Assembly: GCA_017940955.1 (NCBI GenBank)
Contig: JAGAXP010000254.1
Coordinates: forward strand, 1 to 10,172
DNA: 10,172 bases
From: Oribacterium sp.
Lineage (GTDB): Bacteria > Bacillota_A > Clostridia > Lachnospirales > Lachnospiraceae
Direction of reading: 5' to 3'
The position numbers and the translations under genes are program-made. The notes under the pieces were generated by a model. That model saw only the letters and a list, made by a program, of their open reading frames with translations. It made no database searches and was not told where the DNA came from. This document shows, piece by piece, positions 2,629 through 10,157 of this stretch. Every line of letters starts with the position of its first letter. Within the stretch, counting starts at the first letter, position 1.

Positions 2629-2748
2629 ACCCTTAATCGAGAAGAAAGAACCAATTGCTCCCCTGCGCGTTGGCTATAAAAAGTAACCCGAACAGTATAC
2701 ACTCCCGACACAGCAATTAACTCTAAACATAAAAAAAGCAGAGCCACG

Positions 2749-2790
2749 CCAGTGGGGACGGTTCTCGCCGGCGAGAACCGTCCCCACTGG
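2749..2790. repeat. REP-like palindromic element, copy 1
   Basis: This is a perfect 42-bp palindrome. Its 32-bp core (2754-2785) is GGGGACGGTTCTCGCC followed by its reverse complement, identical to copies 2 and 3. The arms here are CCAGT and ACTGG. On the minus strand the palindrome is followed by CGTGGCTCTGC and then seven Ts (2737-2731), so it could also act as a terminator. It lies 44 bp past the T-tract of the dnaJ terminator and upstream of the rsmE promoter. It resembles REP/BIME elements mobilised by Y1-type RAYT transposases, but no such gene is present in the window. Confidence 0.85.
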
Positions 2791-2834
2791 TTCACCCTCG
2801 ACTAAAATCTTAGGAAGAGTAATTAACTTTTATC

Positions 2835-2874
2835 AAAAAAGGCAGAGCTAAAGGATCATTCCTCCGGCTCTGCC
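2835..2874 (-). terminator. Intrinsic terminator of the hrcA-grpE-dnaK-dnaJ operon
   Basis: On the minus strand an 8-bp stem GGCAGAGC/GCTCTGCC (2874-2841) is extended, after one C/A mismatch, by six more pairs including G-U pairs around an ATGA loop. It is followed directly by TTTTTT (2840-2835). It begins 42 nt after the dnaJ stop codon and is a textbook rho-independent terminator. Confidence 0.92.
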
Positions 2875-2916
2875 CTATATATGTACCGACAGAATTGTTA
2901 CTCCCGGTATTGTTTA

Positions 2917-4041
2917 TTAAACATCTATTGTCTCTCCGCAGGTCTTTGCGAAGGCCTTGAGAGCTTCCTTCTGCTCCTTGTTGAGTGAAGAAGGAATATT
3001 TACAACTATGGTAACATACTGGTCACCACGAACATCCGGGTTATTAAGGCTCGGAACACCTTTACCTCTCAGTCTTGTCTTTGTGTCAGACTGAGTTCCC
3101 GGCTTGATCTGAAGTTCTACATTACCGTCTACTGTACGGATAACCTTCTTGCCTCCCAGAGCAGCTGTTGCAAAGCTTATTTCCTCTGTGGAGTAAATGT
3201 TTGTACCCTGACGCTTGAAGAACGGATGCTGTGATACAGCTATATCAACAAGAAGATCTCCTCTCGGACCGCCGTTTGTTCCGGGGTCTCCGCCGCCAGA
3301 ACGACGAAGTGTCTGTCCATCATCGATGCCTGCAGGAATGGTGATCTCGATATTCTTCTGAGTTGTAATATATCCGTCACCATGACAGTCAGGACATTTC
3401 TCTTTGACGATCTTTCCGGATCCCTGACAGTCAGGACATGTAGTTACCTGCTGTATGGTTCCGAACATGCTCTGTCTTGTAACAACCACCTGACCGCGGC
3501 CATTACATCTTGTACAGGTCTCAGGCTGTGTTCCCGGCTTTGCGCCGGTTCCGTTACATTTCTTACACTCGTCCTTATATCTTATCTTAACTGTCTTTTT
3601 ACAGCCCTTGATGGCTTCATCAAAAGTGATACGAACTCCGGTACGGATTGACTGTCCACGAGTTGCCTGATTAGCCGCACTGCCTCCATATGAGGAAAAA
3701 CCGCCACGGGATCCTCCGAAGCCAAAGATATCTCCGAATATATCCGAGAAATCCATACCCCCAAAATCGAATCCGCCAAAACCGCTGCTCTGTCCTGCAG
3801 CCGAGTTTGCGTCAAATGCAGCATGACCGTATGTATCATATGCTCTTCTCTTCTGTTCATCCGAAAGAACCGCATATGCCTCATTTGCCTCACGGAACTT
3901 CTCAGCCGCCGCAGCATCACCGGGATTTGCATCCGGATGATACTTTTTCGCAAGCTTACGGAAAGCTCTCTTTATGGTTGCATCATCAGCATTTTTATCT
4001 ACACCGAGGACTTCATAATAGTCCCGCTTTTGTTCTGCCAT
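2917..4041 (-). CDS. dnaJ: Chaperone protein DnaJ (Hsp40, type I)
   Basis: DnaJ delivers unfolded proteins to DnaK and stimulates its ATPase. The 374 residues show the full type I layout. The J domain (about 5-71) carries the catalytic HPD at 35-37. A Gly/Phe-rich linker (about 83-120) contains FGGFDFGG and [12 protein letters not shown]. The zinc-binding region has four CxxCxGxG repeats at 159-166, 176-183, 202-209 and 216-223. The C-terminal client-binding domains follow, with GIDDGQTLR and GDLLVDIAV. The ATG at 4041 has AGGAG six nt upstream. It is the last gene of the operon, 80 bp after dnaK, and that gap contains a strong stem-loop. A terminator follows the stop. No anomalies are seen. 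Confidence 0.97.
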
Positions 4042-4070
4042 GTTTTACTCCTAGCAATATATCAACATTT

Positions 4071-4095
4071 GCCCCCGACGCAATGCGCCGGAGGC
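4071..4095 (-). other. Strong stem-loop between dnaK and dnaJ
   Basis: On the minus strand GCCTCCGGCG and CGTCGGGGGC pair over 10 bp, with two G-U pairs, around a CATTG loop. The next bases are AAATGTTGAT, with no T-tract, so this is unlikely to be a full terminator. A structure like this could protect the 3' end of dnaK mRNA or reduce read-through, which would lower DnaJ relative to DnaK. That role is inference. Confidence 0.7.
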
Positions 4096-4121
4096 ATTTA
4101 ATAAAACGACGATTTATGATT

Positions 4122-6005
<1,884 letters not shown>

Positions 6006-6038
6006 CTATAAAAAACTGGATTTCTTTATATTTTATAA

Positions 6039-6062
6039 CGGCAGAGCTTTTGACTCCCGCCG
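6039..6062 (-). other. Stem-loop between grpE and dnaK
   Basis: On the minus strand CGGCGGGAG (6062-6054) pairs with CTCTGCCG (6046-6039), giving about 8 bp with one G-U pair and one bulged G around TCAAAAG. It is followed by TTATAAAATATAAAG rather than a T-tract. It lies about 50 nt before the dnaK start and may be a processing or stability element at the boundary between the regulatory genes (hrcA, grpE) and the abundant chaperone dnaK. Confidence 0.55.
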
Positions 6063-6093
6063 AGTGTTACTGGACCATTGCTTTTAATGTTTT

Positions 6094-6738
6094 CTATTTC
6101 TTCACCTTAACCATGCTGTGTCTGATCACCTGATCCTTATAGGTGTAACCCTTCTGAAGATCCTGTGTGACTGTATCCTCAGGTGCATCGCTTTCTGTAT
6201 CTGTCATAACTGCATTGTGGAGGTTCGGATCGAATTTCTCGCCCTCAGCCTTGATGGCTTTGACCTGAAGATCCTCGAACAGTTTTTCAATCTGCTTGTA
6301 GATTCCCTGGACACCCTTTGTGAAAGCATCCTCTTCATCTTCCTTCTCTACAGTTCCCAGAGCTCTTTCAAAATTGTCAACCACCGGGAGAAGCTTCTCG
6401 ATCACTTCTCTGGCACCGAAGTCGAAATTCTGGATCTTCTCCTTCTCAGTACGCTTGCGGAAATTGTCAAACTCCGCATAAAGCCTTGTGTATTTATCCT
6501 TAAGATCGGCTATTTCTGCCTCGTACTTTTCCTTGATTTTTACGGTTTCGTCATCCTCAGCCGCATTTTCATCATCTTTAGCCTCAGCTTCATCATTTTC
6601 TGAAGCTTCCGCATTCTCAGAGTCCTCTGCTGCTTCCTTGTTTTCCTGAGACTCTTCCATGGTCTCCTCAACATTTTCTTCTTTTATTTCTTCTGTACCC
6701 TGTTCTTCGGAAGACTTCTTTATTTCTTCGTCCTTCAA
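6094..6738 (-). CDS. grpE: Nucleotide exchange factor GrpE
   Basis: GrpE is a homodimer that releases ADP from DnaK and so sets the pace of the chaperone cycle; in other bacteria it also acts as a thermosensor. Of 214 residues, the first 65 or so are an extremely acidic, low-complexity tail rich in Glu, Asp, Asn and Ala. A long helix or coiled coil follows (about 66-130), with the family block YAEFDNFRKRTEKEK (87-101) and LLPVVDNFERAL (116-127). The C-terminal beta domain contains EKFDPNLHNAV (167-177), GYTYKDQVIRHSMVKV. The start codon is TTG at 6738, set by a perfect AGGAGG five nt upstream; no ATG gives a better start. The gene lies 71 bp after hrcA. Confidence 0.95.
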   Translation of the reverse strand: MKDEEIKKSSEEQGTEEIKEENVEETMEESQENKEAAEDSENAEASENDEAEAKDDENAAEDDETVKIKEKYEAEIADLKDKYTRLYAEFDNFRKRTEKEKIQNFDFGAREVIEKLLPVVDNFERALGTVEKEDEEDAFTKGVQGIYKQIEKLFEDLQVKAIKAEGEKFDPNLHNAVMTDTESDAPEDTVTQDLQKGYTYKDQVIRHSMVKVKK

Positions 6739-6743
6739 GATAA

Positions 6744-6749
6744 CCTCCT
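6744..6749 (-). promoter_or_regulatory. Ribosome binding site that fixes the TTG start of grpE
   Basis: AGGAGG on the minus strand lies 5 nt before TTG at 6738. A perfect Shine-Dalgarno in front of a non-ATG codon supports TTG as the true start. Confidence 0.85.
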
Positions 6750-6780
6750 GTCCTTAATCCTTACCGGATCTTTATATCTT

Positions 6781-6798
6781 AAGCTGCCCTGCAGCCTT
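6781..6798 (-). other. Small stem-loop between hrcA and grpE
   Basis: On the minus strand GCTGC and GCAGC (6795-6791 and 6787-6783) pair around a 3-nt loop. AAG/CTT just outside extends the stem past one bulged base. No T-tract follows. It is the weakest of the three intercistronic hairpins in this operon. Confidence 0.4.
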
Positions 6799-6809
6799 TT
6801 TAACCTTAG

Positions 6810-7841
6810 CTACTGAAATGCCTGATCCATCTCACTCTGAAGCTTACTGAGTATCTCCAATACCTTTTCATAGTCCATTCGTTTCGGTCCTATGACTCCT
6901 ATGGTTCCCTTCAGTCCGTTTCCAAGCTCGTAATTGGCTGTTATAACCGAGCAGTCTGTCATATTCTGAAGCGGAGATTCTTCTCCGATATAAACCTGTA
7001 TAGGCTTCTTTCCGTCAGTCTGCTCCTGTGATTCCTTTACAAGAGAAGCAAGTTCATCCTTTGTTTCGAATGCACTTATAAGCTTTGATGCATTATCGGA
7101 ATCCACAAGCTCCGGATACTTGAAAATGTTGGTTGCTCCGGAAGTATATATCTGACTCTCCCCGAGGTTGATATCCAGCATATTGAGAATGCTGTCAACT
7201 ATGGCCTTTACAGTACCCTTATAGCTTGTCCTTGCAAGAAGCTGTCCGATACGTCCTTCGGTGATGTCTTCAACGCTCAGTCCGTTAAGTACATCATTGA
7301 GAAGCATGTTAATGCTCAGAACTCTGTTGAAGTCAAGCTCCTCTGCACCGTCCAAAACCACTGATGAAGTCTTTACGATATTTCCCTGCATCATAACGAC
7401 AAGAAGCAGTCTCCTTGCATCCACAAGAGAAGTCTGTATGAACTTGATCTTGTTTGTTCTGATAGAGGGTCCTGTGACCACCGCTGCATATTTAGTATTC
7501 TCAGCAAGGTTTCTGACAAGTGTTTTTAATGTTGTCTCCAGGCGATCCACCTTTTCAAACATTTCGGTTTTCACATCGTCAATCTCATGCTTATGATTTT
7601 CCATGAGCTGATCAACATAAAACCTGTAGCCCTTGTCACTGGGGATACGACCTGCCGAAGTATGAGGCTGAACTATATACCCCATCTCCTCCAGATCACT
7701 CATTTCATTTCTGATGGTGGCAGAGCTGAGATTCAATCCGGAATACTTACTTATGGTTCGTGAGCCTACCGGTTCTCCGGTCTCAAGGTAGTTTTTGATT
7801 ATCGTGGTAAGGATAACAATCTTACGTTGATCCAGTTCCAT
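6810..7841 (-). CDS. hrcA: Heat-inducible transcription repressor HrcA
   Basis: HrcA is a dimeric repressor that binds CIRCE operators and needs GroEL to stay active; heat diverts GroEL and opens the operon. From ATG at 7841 it has 343 residues, the usual family length. The N-terminal winged helix-turn-helix (about 1-75) carries GSRTISKYSGLNLSSATIRN (26-45) and QPHTSAGRIPSDKGYRFYVD (58-77). A GAF-like domain follows, and GTIGVIGPKRMDYEKVLEIL lies near the C-terminus. The start is set by AAGGAGG seven nt upstream. An in-frame GTG at 7874 lies inside the CIRCE element and is not credible. The gene is first in the operon and therefore autoregulated through CIRCE. Confidence 0.97.
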   Translation of the reverse strand: MELDQRKIVILTTIIKNYLETGEPVGSRTISKYSGLNLSSATIRNEMSDLEEMGYIVQPHTSAGRIPSDKGYRFYVDQLMENHKHEIDDVKTEMFEKVDRLETTLKTLVRNLAENTKYAAVVTGPSIRTNKIKFIQTSLVDARRLLLVVMMQGNIVKTSSVVLDGAEELDFNRVLSINMLLNDVLNGLSVEDITEGRIGQLLARTSYKGTVKAIVDSILNMLDINLGESQIYTSGATNIFKYPELVDSDNASKLISAFETKDELASLVKESQEQTDGKKPIQVYIGEESPLQNMTDCSVITANYELGNGLKGTIGVIGPKRMDYEKVLEILSKLQSEMDQAFQ

Positions 7842-7848
7842 CTCTCCG

Positions 7849-7855
7849 CCTCCTT
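7849..7855 (-). promoter_or_regulatory. Ribosome binding site that fixes the hrcA start
   Basis: AAGGAGG on the minus strand, 7 nt before ATG at 7841. It selects this ATG over the in-frame GTG at 7874. Confidence 0.9.
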
Positions 7856-7867
7856 CTGTATTTTTTG

Positions 7868-7894
7868 TTAGCACTCAAAATATTGGAGTGCTAA
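7868..7894. promoter_or_regulatory. CIRCE operator (HrcA binding site)
   Basis: This is a perfect consensus CIRCE element, TTAGCACTC-N9-GAGTGCTAA, extended by one G/C pair on each side. It lies in the hrcA leader at roughly +6 to +32 from the expected start of transcription, so bound HrcA would block initiation or elongation. It is the only CIRCE in the window and controls the whole hrcA-grpE-dnaK-dnaJ operon. Confidence 0.98.
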
Positions 7895-7906
7895 CATCTG
7901 AAATTT

Positions 7907-7935
7907 ATAATACTCGCCTTGTAAATCTATGTCAA
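7907..7935 (-). promoter_or_regulatory. Sigma-A promoter of the hrcA operon
   Basis: On the minus strand, TTGACA (7935-7930), exactly 17 bp, then TATTAT (7912-7907). This is a near-perfect vegetative promoter, as is usual for CIRCE-controlled genes: strong by default and held down by HrcA. Transcription should start near 7900, just before CIRCE. Confidence 0.92.
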
Positions 7936-7988
7936 GAACTTTAACCAAATGCAATTGTGAATAAAAAATGAACTGTAAAAAAAAAGCA

Positions 7989-8040
7989 GAAATCCATTGG
8001 GGACGGTTCTCGCCGGCGAGAACCGTCCCCAATGGATTTC
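7989..8040. repeat. REP-like palindromic element, copy 2
   Basis: This is a perfect 52-bp palindrome, the longest of the three. The 32-bp core (7999-8030) is identical to the other copies. The arms are GAAATCCATT and AATGGATTTC. On the minus strand it is followed by TGC and nine Ts, so it could serve as a back-up terminator between the 3D-domain gene and hrcA. It begins only 5 bp past the T-tract of the preceding terminator. Confidence 0.87.
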
Positions 8041-8045
8041 CGGTC

Positions 8046-8076
8046 AAAAAAAGAGTCAGACCGTAATGTCTGACCC
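8046..8076 (-). terminator. Intrinsic terminator of the 3D-domain gene
   Basis: On the minus strand GGGTCAGAC and GTCTGACTC form a 9-bp stem with one G-U pair around a 6-nt loop (8076-8053), followed directly by TTTTTTT (8052-8046). It begins about 123 nt after the stop codon at 8200. Confidence 0.9.
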
Positions 8077-8199
8077 TGAATAACCAAGAAAACCTCACTG
8101 TGCTTTTAAAGCTCAAATCCTTATGTACTCATTAATTAATGTGTATTCTTACCGTTAATATCTTACGCACAGCTGCCATTTTGGTAAGTTCATCATTCA

Positions 8200-8790
8200 T
8201 CAAACCGGAACTGCCAGATACACATCTGCGTACTGCCAGCCTCTGTCGGTTACGCCTGCGGCTTCCGCATAGGTATCATAGTATACATCTATAAGATTGC
8301 CCTTAACCGCTCCGCCGATATCTTCAACTGTATAGACAGTATTATTGATAAAGACCTTTGTTCCCATAGGAATAACACCAAGATCTGCAGCAATGGTATG
8401 ATTTGCAGTGGTATATGCGCCGGAATAAGTAACTCCCGCTCCATAATAACCCGTAAGTTTGAAATTGCCGATCAGATTTCCACGCTTATAATGCGTAGTT
8501 TCCTCTGTGACAACACTTCCTACCTTTGTAACCGGATTACCTGCTGACTGCTTAGCCGCAGTCTCAAGAGCCTTTAACTGCTCTGCAAGCAGCTGTTCGG
8601 CATACATTTCAGCCTGAATCTCTGCATCCATTTCAGAATCCGAAGACTGAACAAGTTCATAGCCCTTAACCATGGACTCATCACTCCAGGCTGTACCTGT
8701 GGGGCCTGCACTGGCCGCCAAAGCAGAAGTTGAAACCAACGCGGTAATAAATAACGTTGCCGCAGCTGTTTTTAGCCCTGCCATCTTCAT
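8200..8790 (-). CDS. Secreted 3D-domain (double-psi beta-barrel) cell-wall protein
   Basis: The 196-residue protein begins with a clear signal peptide: MKMAGLK, a hydrophobic stretch (8-24) and an ALA cleavage site near residue 25. A charged, Glu/Ala/Gln-rich helical segment (about 45-80) follows. The C-terminal 3D domain (about 108-196) has FKLTGYYG, then the three hallmark aspartates in AADLG (Asp136), VEDIGG (Asp157) and LIDVYY (Asp168). The fold is related to MltA and to the C-terminus of Rpf/Sps-type wall enzymes, so it probably binds or cleaves peptidoglycan outside the cell; the substrate is not provable here. The ATG at 8790 has a perfect AGGAGG nine nt upstream. The frame stays open upstream to 8925 but without a ribosome binding site. 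The gene is monocistronic, with a long leader and its own terminator. Confidence 0.85.
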   Translation of the reverse strand: MKMAGLKTAAATLFITALVSTSALAASAGPTGTAWSDESMVKGYELVQSSDSEMDAEIQAEMYAEQLLAEQLKALETAAKQSAGNPVTKVGSVVTEETTHYKRGNLIGNFKLTGYYGAGVTYSGAYTTANHTIAADLGVIPMGTKVFINNTVYTVEDIGGAVKGNLIDVYYDTYAEAAGVTDRGWQYADVYLAVPV

Positions 8791-8799
8791 ATAATTGTT

Positions 8800-8805
8800 C
8801 CTCCT
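8800..8805 (-). promoter_or_regulatory. Ribosome binding site that fixes the 3D-domain gene start
   Basis: AGGAGG on the minus strand, 9 nt before ATG at 8790. With the signal peptide beginning at this ATG, it rules out the longer in-frame start at 8925. Confidence 0.88.
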
Positions 8806-8961
8806 ATAGTTATCCTTACCCAAAGCCAGACTATATATATTGCTTTGATACAGTGTGATCATTTTCAGAATTTGGAAAATGTCTGTCTCTGCGAAATAAG
8901 GAATCACAATCGCCTTAAATATCAACGATTTTTCTACGATTTTGCAACATAAGACGCTATG

Positions 8962-8990
8962 ACCTTAATACAGCTTTGTAAAACGGTCAA
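8962..8990 (-). promoter_or_regulatory. Candidate promoter of the 3D-domain gene with upstream A/T tracts
   Basis: On the minus strand TTGACC (8990-8985), 17 bp, TAAGGT (8967-8962). The -35 is good and the -10 is weak. Directly upstream, two tandem CTAAATTTTTT-type units (8991-9013, plus strand) and more A/T tracts up to 9056 resemble an UP element or bent DNA. It would give a leader of about 165 nt. No holA terminator with a GC stem is visible, so read-through from holA is also possible. Confidence 0.4.
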
Positions 8991-9053
8991 CTAAATTTTT
9001 TCTAAATTTTTTTACAAAAAACCAAAAGTCAATTAAAAAATGTACTGATTTTT

Positions 9054-10070
9054 TTACACCGTTAACAGTAATTCTACCGCCATTCTGTCTGTTAGATTAC
9101 CGCTCTTTATGGACTCATCATACTCCAGACATCTGCTGATATAATCCTCTATACTTTCCAGTGAATAGTGCTTTGCCTGGTTCTGAAGCCTGCCCAGGAT
9201 CCAGGGGGAAACATTAACATATTTGGCAGCTTCCTGCCCGTTCATGCCCTTTGTTAACGACTCTTTGGTAAGAAGCAGCTGGTTGAAATTTCTCCTCATA
9301 AGACTCAGAATCTTCATAGGTGCTTCCTGGAGTGTAAGGAGATCGCCATAATACTGCATGGCTTTCTGTTTATTTCCGAGACTCATCTCTGTGATCATGT
9401 CGAAAACTCTGTCTTCAACATTCTGGGAACATATAGTCTCCACATCCTGATCTTCGATTATGTCCCTTTCTCCCGTATATGCGATCAGCTTTTCAAGCTC
9501 TGAAGCGATATTATCCATACTGTTTCCTGTTTTACCGAGGATCAGCTCCATGGTTGAATTTCTGATCTTTTTTCCGGCATTGGTGAGATATCTGGCTGCC
9601 CATCTTCCAAGTTGTGCCTGATCCTGAAATCCAAGCTCACAGTCAAAACCGTTTTTCTGTATGATCTTGTAAAGCTTCCCTCTTTTGTCGACCTCTTTCT
9701 CTATAAACATAAGGTGGGCCGTTTCCGGGAAATGCTCAATATCCTCAAGATATTTCACGATTTTCTCAGGCGGAGCTTTTTTAAACCACTGACTGTCGCT
9801 TACTATCACGAGCCTTCCGTTGTTATCCCCGAAAGTGAAAGGAATAGTGTTTAAAATGTCTATCAGCTCATCCACGTCCGGCGCCCCGTCAAAAAAGGTG
9901 TAGGCCATACCCTCTTCACCTCCGAAGGCTTTTCTGAAAGCCTTCTTATAGGACAGCTTCAGAAATTCTTCCTCTCCGTAAAGAAGGTAATATGGCTTGA
10001 AATCGCCGCTTTTAAGGTCGGTTCCAAGCTGCTGATAATCATTTTCGTTTTCTTTTTTCTTAAATGCCAT
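9054..10070 (-). CDS. holA: DNA polymerase III, delta subunit (clamp loader)
   Basis: HolA opens the beta sliding clamp as part of the clamp-loader complex. The N-terminal block KPYYLLYGEEEFL is the family signature. It is followed by NTIPFTFGDNNGRLVIVSD, LMFIEKEVDKRGKLYKII, the IASELEKLIAYTG segment and VFDMITEMSLGNKQKAM leading into the C-terminal collar domain with MRRNFNQLL. The AAA+-like fold of delta does not hydrolyse ATP, and no P-loop is seen, as expected. I prefer the ATG at 10070 (MAFKKK, 338 residues), which has GGGG a few bases upstream; an in-frame ATG at 10085 (MIGVYM) lacks a ribosome binding site. A palindromic repeat lies upstream. Confidence 0.93.
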   Translation of the reverse strand: MAFKKKENENDYQQLGTDLKSGDFKPYYLLYGEEEFLKLSYKKAFRKAFGGEEGMAYTFFDGAPDVDELIDILNTIPFTFGDNNGRLVIVSDSQWFKKAPPEKIVKYLEDIEHFPETAHLMFIEKEVDKRGKLYKIIQKNGFDCELGFQDQAQLGRWAARYLTNAGKKIRNSTMELILGKTGNSMDNIASELEKLIAYTGERDIIEDQDVETICSQNVEDRVFDMITEMSLGNKQKAMQYYGDLLTLQEAPMKILSLMRRNFNQLLLTKESLTKGMNGQEAAKYVNVSPWILGRLQNQAKHYSLESIEDYISRCLEYDESIKSGNLTDRMAVELLLTV

Positions 10071-10113
10071 ATATACCCCGATCAATCATGGTCTCAATAA
10101 GTCTGATATGAAA

Positions 10114-10157
10114 GCCACCGGGGACGGTTCTCGCCGGCGAGAACCGTCCCCCGTGGC
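10114..10157. repeat. REP-like palindromic element, copy 3
   Basis: A 44-bp near-perfect palindrome whose 32-bp core (10120-10151) is identical to copies 1 and 2. The arms are GCCACC and CGTGGC, paired at five of six positions with a C/C mismatch next to the core (10119/10152). It lies 43 bp upstream of the preferred holA start, and the gene before holA is outside the window. Unlike copies 1 and 2, no long T-tract follows on the minus strand. Confidence 0.85.

What the first reader, a model, noticed from the sequence alone, without database searches (positions are those of the whole stretch)
2749..10157. Dispersed family of long palindromes with an invariant 32-bp core, three copies in 10 kb
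Positions 2754-2785, 7999-8030 and 10120-10151 carry the same sequence: GGGGACGGTTCTCGCC followed by its reverse complement, with no change among the copies, while the surrounding intergenic DNA is unrelated. The GC-rich core stands out in AT-rich gaps. Identity over 32 bp points to recent spread or strong selection. It resembles REP/BIME elements, which Y1-type RAYT transposases mobilise, but the perfect head-to-head symmetry of 42-52 bp is unusual for a single REP unit.
Basis: partly seen in the sequence, partly recalled or inferred. Interest (0 to 1): 0.75.

Follow-up and report, generated by a model that had tools for sequence, protein, structure and literature searches.

The report
Mobile DNA palindromes with self-matching arms
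The three identical palindromes belong to a family of small repeats in rumen Oribacterium bacteria, very probably spread by a single-strand-cutting transposase; the two arms of a copy tend to change together, which suggests that one arm serves as the template for the other.

Summary
In detail: one 32-bp palindrome stands at 2754-2785, 7999-8030 and 10120-10151. The window's genome is not held. A Y1 (RAYT-type) transposase gene there lies between two copies, and 6 of the 30 fall in 7.4 kb around it. In 397 Lachnospiraceae genomes the motif GGGGACGGTTCT reaches 10 copies in 13 of 30 genomes with a homologue and 9 of 367 without, and it flanks a part of those homologues as inverted repeats. This resembles 'TIR repeats' of TIRYT transposases more than GTAG-tagged REPs. 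Less ordinary: sequence outside the core differs between copies yet pairs within each copy (129 sites), and orthologous copies differ by the same change on both arms in 10 of 24 groups. Mismatches show no G-U bias along the transcript (43 GU, 45 AC), which speaks against selection on RNA and for hairpin-templated copying of one arm onto the other. Transposition and templating are inferred, not shown.

The parts
2749..2790 (.). copy 1: 42-bp perfect palindrome (32-bp core 2754-2785 plus arms CCAGT/ACTGG), between dnaJ and rsmE
7989..8040 (.). copy 2: 52-bp perfect palindrome (core 7999-8030, arms GAAATCCATT/AATGGATTTC), between the gene of a secreted protein (8200-8925) and hrcA
   Evidence: orthologues in G001 and G011 have CCACC/GGTGG instead of CCATT/AATGG
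10114..10157 (.). copy 3: core 10120-10151, C/C mismatch, then 5 more pairs (GCCAC/GTGGC), upstream of holA
   Evidence: present in G011, absent in G013
2835..2874 (-). intrinsic-terminator-like hairpin and T-run of dnaJ, pointing at copy 1
   Evidence: read by eye
8046..8076 (-). intrinsic-terminator-like hairpin and T-run of the gene at 8200-8925, pointing at copy 2
   Evidence: read by eye; also in G001 and G011

Best explanation
The palindrome is a non-autonomous miniature mobile element, a dispersed terminal-inverted-repeat unit of a RAYT/TIRYT-type Y1 (HUH) transposase. Inferred action: the transposase recognises the GGGGACGG half-sites as a hairpin in single-stranded DNA and copies or moves the unit into tolerated intergenic places, often just behind genes and their terminators. 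Once in place the hairpin can template itself (template switching at a fork, or repair of an extruded hairpin), so that changes in one arm, in the core or in the outer arm, are occasionally copied to the other arm. That keeps copies palindromic while their sequence drifts. Shown: copy number, placement, transposase gene between two copies, motif-transposase association, presence or absence at orthologous places, coordinated arms. Inferred: transposition by this enzyme, and templated copying (my own weight for templating, against selection or conversion from other copies, is about 0.55).
For:: 88, 95 and 23 exact half-sites in G001, G011, G013 (reversed-pattern control 0 in these three); 0 in the other 14 of 17 genus genomes. 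Y1 gene G001:C1:192979-193722 between complete copies at 192792 and 193743; 6 of 30 complete palindromes in 7.4 kb around it (0.06 expected; P 5e-11 for 6 and 5e-7 for the 4 that do not directly flank the gene, uncorrected for choosing the stretch); of 397 family genomes 30 have a homologue (E<=1e-40) and 22 have >=10 motif copies; both in 13 (Fisher P 5e-11; thresholds chosen by me). GGGGACGGTT inverted on both sides of the gene at 8 of 31 loci exactly (G001's own included), 12 of 31 with one mismatch; shuffled 10-mers mean 0.01 (max 1) and 0.15 (max 11); places filled in one genome and without the element in another; outer-arm pairing 0.637 against 0.489 (sd 0.011) when arms are swapped between 129 sites; same core change on both arms 20 against means 2.75 and 3.62 (maxima 12 and 11); same change on both arms between orthologues in 10 of 24 groups; no G-U excess along the transcript (43 GU, 45 AC).
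Against: G013 (98% complete, 23 half-sites) and G011 (77%-complete MAG, 95 half-sites) show no close homologue of the gene, only 36-37% ones without this motif in the fetched flanks (the G011 one is at a contig end). No excision product and no constant target duplication was seen. The protein scores below the NCBIfam cut-off for REP-associated tyrosine transposase (54 of 80 bits), although it passes PF01797. 17 of 30 genomes with the gene have fewer than 10 motif copies and 9 of 22 motif-rich genomes lack it at that threshold; 19 of 31 transposase loci lack the motif inverted on both sides even with one mismatch. In G001 alone the excess of same-core-change is not significant (6; means 2.37, maxima 7 and 12). 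Single-arm differences outnumber symmetric ones. Some symmetric variants (GTGG) recur at several sites, as conversion between copies would give. Many copies are orthologues of each other, so the tests over all copies are not of independent events.
Confidence: 0.75

Rival explanations
1. The arms co-vary because selection keeps an RNA hairpin (terminator, mRNA stabiliser); changes are compensated one by one.
For: Copies are mostly intergenic (10 of 127 inside a called ORF; random points 1562 of 1960), relatively frequent between convergent genes (28 convergent, 9 divergent; control gaps 25 and 44) and often behind a terminator (30 of 127; control points 62 of 1025). Copies between convergent genes are the best paired (1.29 mismatches of 21, 28 copies). 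The hairpins are very stable (-45.7 to -49.5 kcal/mol).
Against: Mismatches in 70 tandem sites show no preference for G-U over A-C along the transcript (43, 45). Nine copies between divergent genes are as well paired (2.22 mismatches of 21) as 70 tandem ones (2.24), a small sample. Symmetric insertions of a G and multi-base symmetric changes occur.
Confidence: 0.15
2. Symmetric variants are subfamilies: a variant palindrome arises once, then replaces others by new insertion or by gene conversion between dispersed copies.
For: GTGG cores occur at three places, one each in G001, G011 and G013, and CCATT arms at more than one place.
Against: Some variants are seen at one place only among the held copies (GTAGTCGG at L180, GGGTACTG at L197), and site-specific outer arms are retained while the adjacent core or arm changes (copy 2).
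Confidence: 0.25
3. The palindrome is an ordinary terminator sequence multiplied without a transposase.
For: Long GC-rich hairpin, some copies followed by T-runs.
Against: 30 of 127 copies stand behind an existing terminator-like hairpin; the motif is associated with a Y1 transposase family over 397 genomes and flanks a part of its genes.
Confidence: 0.05

Closest known systems
TIR repeats of TIRYT transposases (TIRtrons), Di Nocera et al. 2013, PMC3733652 (abstract, passages and section 16 read; figures not held)
   Same: RAYT-like Y1 transposase gene flanked by long inverted repeats unrelated to GTAG REPs; some TIRs self-complementary, some sharing a G-rich motif GGGGWSAS; moderately abundant dispersed TIR repeats in some genomes
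   Different: Motif here is GGGGACGG (the A of the consensus replaced by G); the words clostridi and lachnospir do not occur in that main text; here a gap-free dimer with an invariant centre and copy-specific paired outer arms
REPINs (REP doublets forming hairpins) with RAYTs, Bertels and Rainey 2011, PMC3116915 (passages read)
   Same: Inverted doublets forming hairpins, dispersed between genes, clustered beside a RAYT gene; compensatory changes on both sides of the hairpin reported as common
   Different: In REPINs two invariant ends enclose a varying spacer; here the invariant part is the centre, there is no spacer and the outside varies
GTAG- and CGTC-tagged REPs (PMC3733652)
   Same: Short intergenic palindromes, head-to-head dimers common
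   Different: No unpaired GTAG or CGTC tag; CGTC lies inside the paired stem; CGTC REPs were reported without a dedicated transposase
Quasipalindrome-associated template-switch mutation (PMC7202029, passages read) and template switching that maintains RNA hairpins (PMC8794818, passages read)
   Same: One arm templates the other, making stems perfect and giving multi-base compensatory changes
   Different: Described from E. coli reporters and from RNA genes; not tied to a dispersed mobile palindrome in the passages read

Membership tests
TIR repeats / TIRYT | RAYT-like Y1 (HUH) transposase gene | tested here: met
   In G001: PF01797 E 2.1e-16, 60.6 bits against cut-off 23; NCBIfam REP_Tyr_transpos 54.2 bits, below its cut-off of 80; the HUH (HVH) and tyrosine motifs were read by eye from recall
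TIR repeats / TIRYT | gene flanked on both sides by the same inverted repeat | tested here: met
   G001: 44-base shared inverted repeat in the two flanks. Over 31 loci the exact 10-mer is inverted on both sides at 8
TIR repeats / TIRYT | GGGGWSAS motif in the TIR | tested here: inconclusive
   core has GGGGACGG; GGGGACAG inverted on both sides at 2 of 31 loci; the motif is reported for some TIRs only
TIR repeats / TIRYT | dispersed family of the TIR in the genome | tested here: met
   88 half-sites in G001
GTAG REP | unpaired GTAG at one end | tested here: not met
   no GTAG in the core and none at a constant place beside it; GTAG occurs in inner units of some arrays
GTAG REP | RAYT gene flanked by the repeat, many intergenic copies | tested here: met
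CGTC REP | unpaired CGTC end, 8-9 bp stem, 4-5 base loop | tested here: not met
   CGTC is inside the stem of a longer palindrome without a spacer
REPIN | two invariant ends around a variable paired spacer | tested here: not met
   invariant centre, variable outside
Y1-mobilised element | cleavage and transposition by the enzyme | not testable with these tools
   needs protein and cells
intrinsic terminator | stem directly followed by a U-run | tested here: inconclusive
   not scored for the palindromes themselves; T-runs follow some copies at a few bases' distance; a terminator-like hairpin pointing at the copy lies within 60 bp at 30 of 127

The most novel reading that the evidence does not exclude
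A dispersed bacterial palindrome family in which the two arms at each site evolve in concert by hairpin-templated DNA copying, extending into neighbouring host sequence, so that each copy becomes a site-specific palindrome around an invariant transposase-recognition centre; concerted evolution thus acts within each element, not only between copies.
Probability: 0.35. Interest if true: 0.6.

Novelty: new member of a known kind. Interest (0 to 1): 0.42.

Why it matters
It adds a transposase-linked palindrome family of rumen bacteria, related to a motif that reaches 10 or more copies in 22 of 397 Lachnospiraceae genomes examined. The orthologous copies are a natural data set for an open question: whether perfect stems are kept by selection or by templated mutation. 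The G-U test used here is simple and can be repeated on other REP-like families.

Tried and rejected
Insertion into the tip of a pre-existing hairpin: at element-free orthologous places (copy 2 and copy 3 in G013, L071 in G001 and G013, L058 in G001, L027 in G011 and G013) I saw ordinary terminators or no evident hairpin, and none whose arms match the element's outer arms (read by eye). At L058 and copy 2 a terminator stands at the place, so a terminator as target or landmark is not excluded. The G013 place of L020 is doubtful (empty or decayed).

Target-site duplication: at copies 1 and 2 and at L071 terminator parts seem repeated on both sides of the element, but the repeats are degenerate and I found no constant length; left open.

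Copy 1 in G001 is a broken copy (a half-site followed by other sequence); in G013 it is absent.

Orthologue groups: of 30 sites listed I used 22 as queries (12, 10), several picked because of long outer arms; of 23 places asked for, 3 gave no orthologue with both flanks. 8 of the 10 symmetric groups come from this picked set, so 10 of 24 is not an unbiased rate. The 10 groups were read by eye: copy 2, 57, L029, L033, L044, L050, L052, L055, L063, L079. L033 may be two independent insertions. Column counts (642 same, 42 symmetric, 107 single-arm, 9 shared mismatch, 14 other, 4 gap) repeat pairs within groups, contain shifted G-runs (such as L044, L055, L036, L063) and one mis-centred row (copy 3 of the window), so they are not used as a test.

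Viral contigs: the 32-mer has 0 matches. Solved structures: phmmer finds no chain at E<=0.01. Literature: the string GGGGACGGTTCT gave one paper, on a fungus (listing only); TIRYT two papers; Oribacterium with repetitive extragenic palindrome none; REP with template switch, compensatory and inverted repeat none. The library lacks most subscription journals, so this is no proof of absence.

The ORF caller is a crude longest-ORF method; ORFs that merely run over an element count as 'inside'. The terminator control uses random points in 205 element-free gaps and is not matched for distance to gene ends. The gathering of copies: G001 copies were mostly found by an exact half-site and others by the exact 32-mer, so decayed copies are under-represented.
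Full report
The window (10,172 bases) holds six exact copies of the 16-base half-site and no near ones with up to three mismatches; they form three identical 32-bp palindromes, against a mean of 0.04 matches in shuffled sequence. The genes around them are hrcA, grpE, dnaK, dnaJ, rsmE, a cysteine desulfurase, a secreted protein and holA, named from the translations by recall. Pairing goes on for 5 bp outside the core at copy 1, 10 bp at copy 2, and at copy 3 only after a C/C mismatch.

The window's own assembly is not held. G001 has 88 exact half-sites with none for the reversed control; I count 30 adjacent head-to-head pairs in that list. In the genus, 3 of 17 genomes have the half-site: 88, 95 and 23 places. 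The full 32-mer was found in 61 stretches of genome contigs, 59 of them titled Oribacterium, and in no viral contig.

PF01797 gives 30 places in G001, many of them fragments. One, C1:192979-193722, lies between complete palindromes at 192792 and 193743; six of the 30 complete palindromes fall in the 7.4 kb from 191038 to 198429, where 0.06 are expected (the stretch was chosen after seeing it). The protein matches Y1_Tnp above its cut-off and REP-associated tyrosine transposase below its cut-off. At the corresponding place in G011 the gene is missing and a neighbouring lipoprotein gene is inverted between elements. In the protein collection 568 proteins match at E<=1e-50; the best 120 are listed, the first 98% identical with no source shown, the others at up to 61%; of the few that carry a name, six are called Butyrivibrio transposases and two RayT.

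The link between enzyme and motif was tested in 397 Lachnospiraceae genomes. A homologue at E<=1e-40 is in 30. The 12-mer GGGGACGGTTCT occurs 10 or more times in 22 by my count; 13 genomes are in both sets (Fisher P 5e-11; both thresholds are mine). The reversed control never exceeds 2 in a genome. The 10-mer GGGGACGGTT, read towards the gene on both sides within 450 bp, is found at 8 of 31 transposase loci (30 of the 34 matches, G001's own among them, and the G017 match), and at 12 of 31 with one mismatch. Shuffled 10-mers give means of 0.01 (max 1) and 0.15 (max 11, perhaps a shuffle close to the motif itself). Some other loci have related inverted repeats, such as ones with GGGGACAG. In three further genomes eight head-to-head motif pairs were read; seven have 4-22 paired bases outside the motif and one has a single pair (30 loci fetched of 239 places, too few for a test).

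The outside of the palindrome is the interesting part. In 129 unique copies with at least 23 of 32 core letters, the 12 bases outside the core pair at 0.637 of positions; swapping right arms between copies gives 0.489, sd 0.011, maximum 0.533 in 2000 swaps. Without the copies that have CCACC on both sides (74 left) it is 0.582 against 0.408. In G001 alone (68) it is 0.599 against 0.483. The copies were found by core sequence, so this measure is not biased by the search, except that some orthologous loci were fetched for long arms, and some of the 129 are orthologues of each other. Deviations from the core consensus that are the same on both arms number 20 (means 2.75 and 3.62 under two shuffles, maxima 12 and 11); in G011 and G013, 14 against 1.3 (maxima 6 and 7); in G001 alone 6 against 2.4, not significant. 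G001 copies were mostly fetched by an exact half, which works against finding symmetric changes there.

Orthologous copies show the pattern directly. At copy 2 G001 and G011 have CCACC/GGTGG where the window has CCATT/AATGG, two adjacent changes on each arm, while the GAAATCC arms further out are the same in all three. Other pairs differ by GGGG to GTGG on both arms, by an extra G on both arms, by GGGGACGG to GTAGTCGG on both arms, and so on. I read such a change in 10 of 24 orthologue groups, 8 of the 10 from sites partly picked for long arms. Single-arm differences are commoner than symmetric ones, so pairing is not strictly guarded.

Selection on RNA should tolerate G-U and so leave G-U pairs more often than A-C pairs when read along the transcript. 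In 70 copies between tandem genes the mismatched pairs are 43 GU, 45 AC and 69 other. Copies between divergent genes are as well paired as those between tandem genes (means 2.22 and 2.24 mismatches of 21; 9 and 70 copies); convergent ones are better (1.29; 28 copies), which is what selection on a 3' hairpin might also give. On balance this favours a DNA process such as quasipalindrome correction (PMC7202029, passages) or template switching (PMC8794818, passages), but conversion between copies remains possible, and Bertels and Rainey (PMC3116915, passages) already noted that compensatory changes in REPIN hairpins are common.

Placement: 10 of 127 copies are inside a called ORF of 100 or more codons, random points 1562 of 1960. 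The rest are 70 tandem, 28 convergent, 9 divergent and 10 undetermined; element-free gaps are 136, 25 and 44. A terminator-like hairpin pointing at the core ends within 60 bp of it at 30 of 127 copies, 22 of these at 8-22 bases, against 62 of 1025 control points; in G001 alone 15 of 68. At several orthologous places the element is present in one genome and absent in another. Whether terminators are targets or only tolerated neighbourhoods is not settled.

Verdict: a new TIR-repeat family of a RAYT/TIRYT transposase in Oribacterium, part of a motif family of Lachnospiraceae, with arms that co-vary in a way best explained by hairpin-templated copying. The first part is well supported by association; neither movement nor templating has been shown by experiment.

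Noticed in passing
L049 (G011) against L112:6873-11500 (G001): At the transposase locus G011 lacks the palindrome-transposase-palindrome cassette and has a lipoprotein gene in inverted orientation between elements, as if the palindromes served as breakpoints.
   Followed up: partly
L119:4980-5128: Tandem array of eight 19-bp units (GGTAGGGACGGTTCTCCCC type) all in one orientation, ending in one exact half-site; several inner units contain GTAG.
   Followed up: no
G001, contig ends: Many of the 30 PF01797 matches are fragments at contig ends, suggesting a high-copy IS200-like element that breaks the assembly.
   Followed up: no
window 7868-7894: CIRCE-like inverted repeat TTAGCACTC-N9-GAGTGCTAA upstream of hrcA (motif name recalled).
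   Followed up: no
window 2731-2745 and 2835-2849: AAAAAAAGCAGAGCC and AAAAAAGGCAGAGCT on either side of copy 1: part of the dnaJ terminator seems duplicated around the element; something similar near L071.
   Followed up: partly
P0001: Cluster of nine proteins 98% identical to the G001 transposase, source not shown, on a contig of 1078 bases.
   Followed up: no
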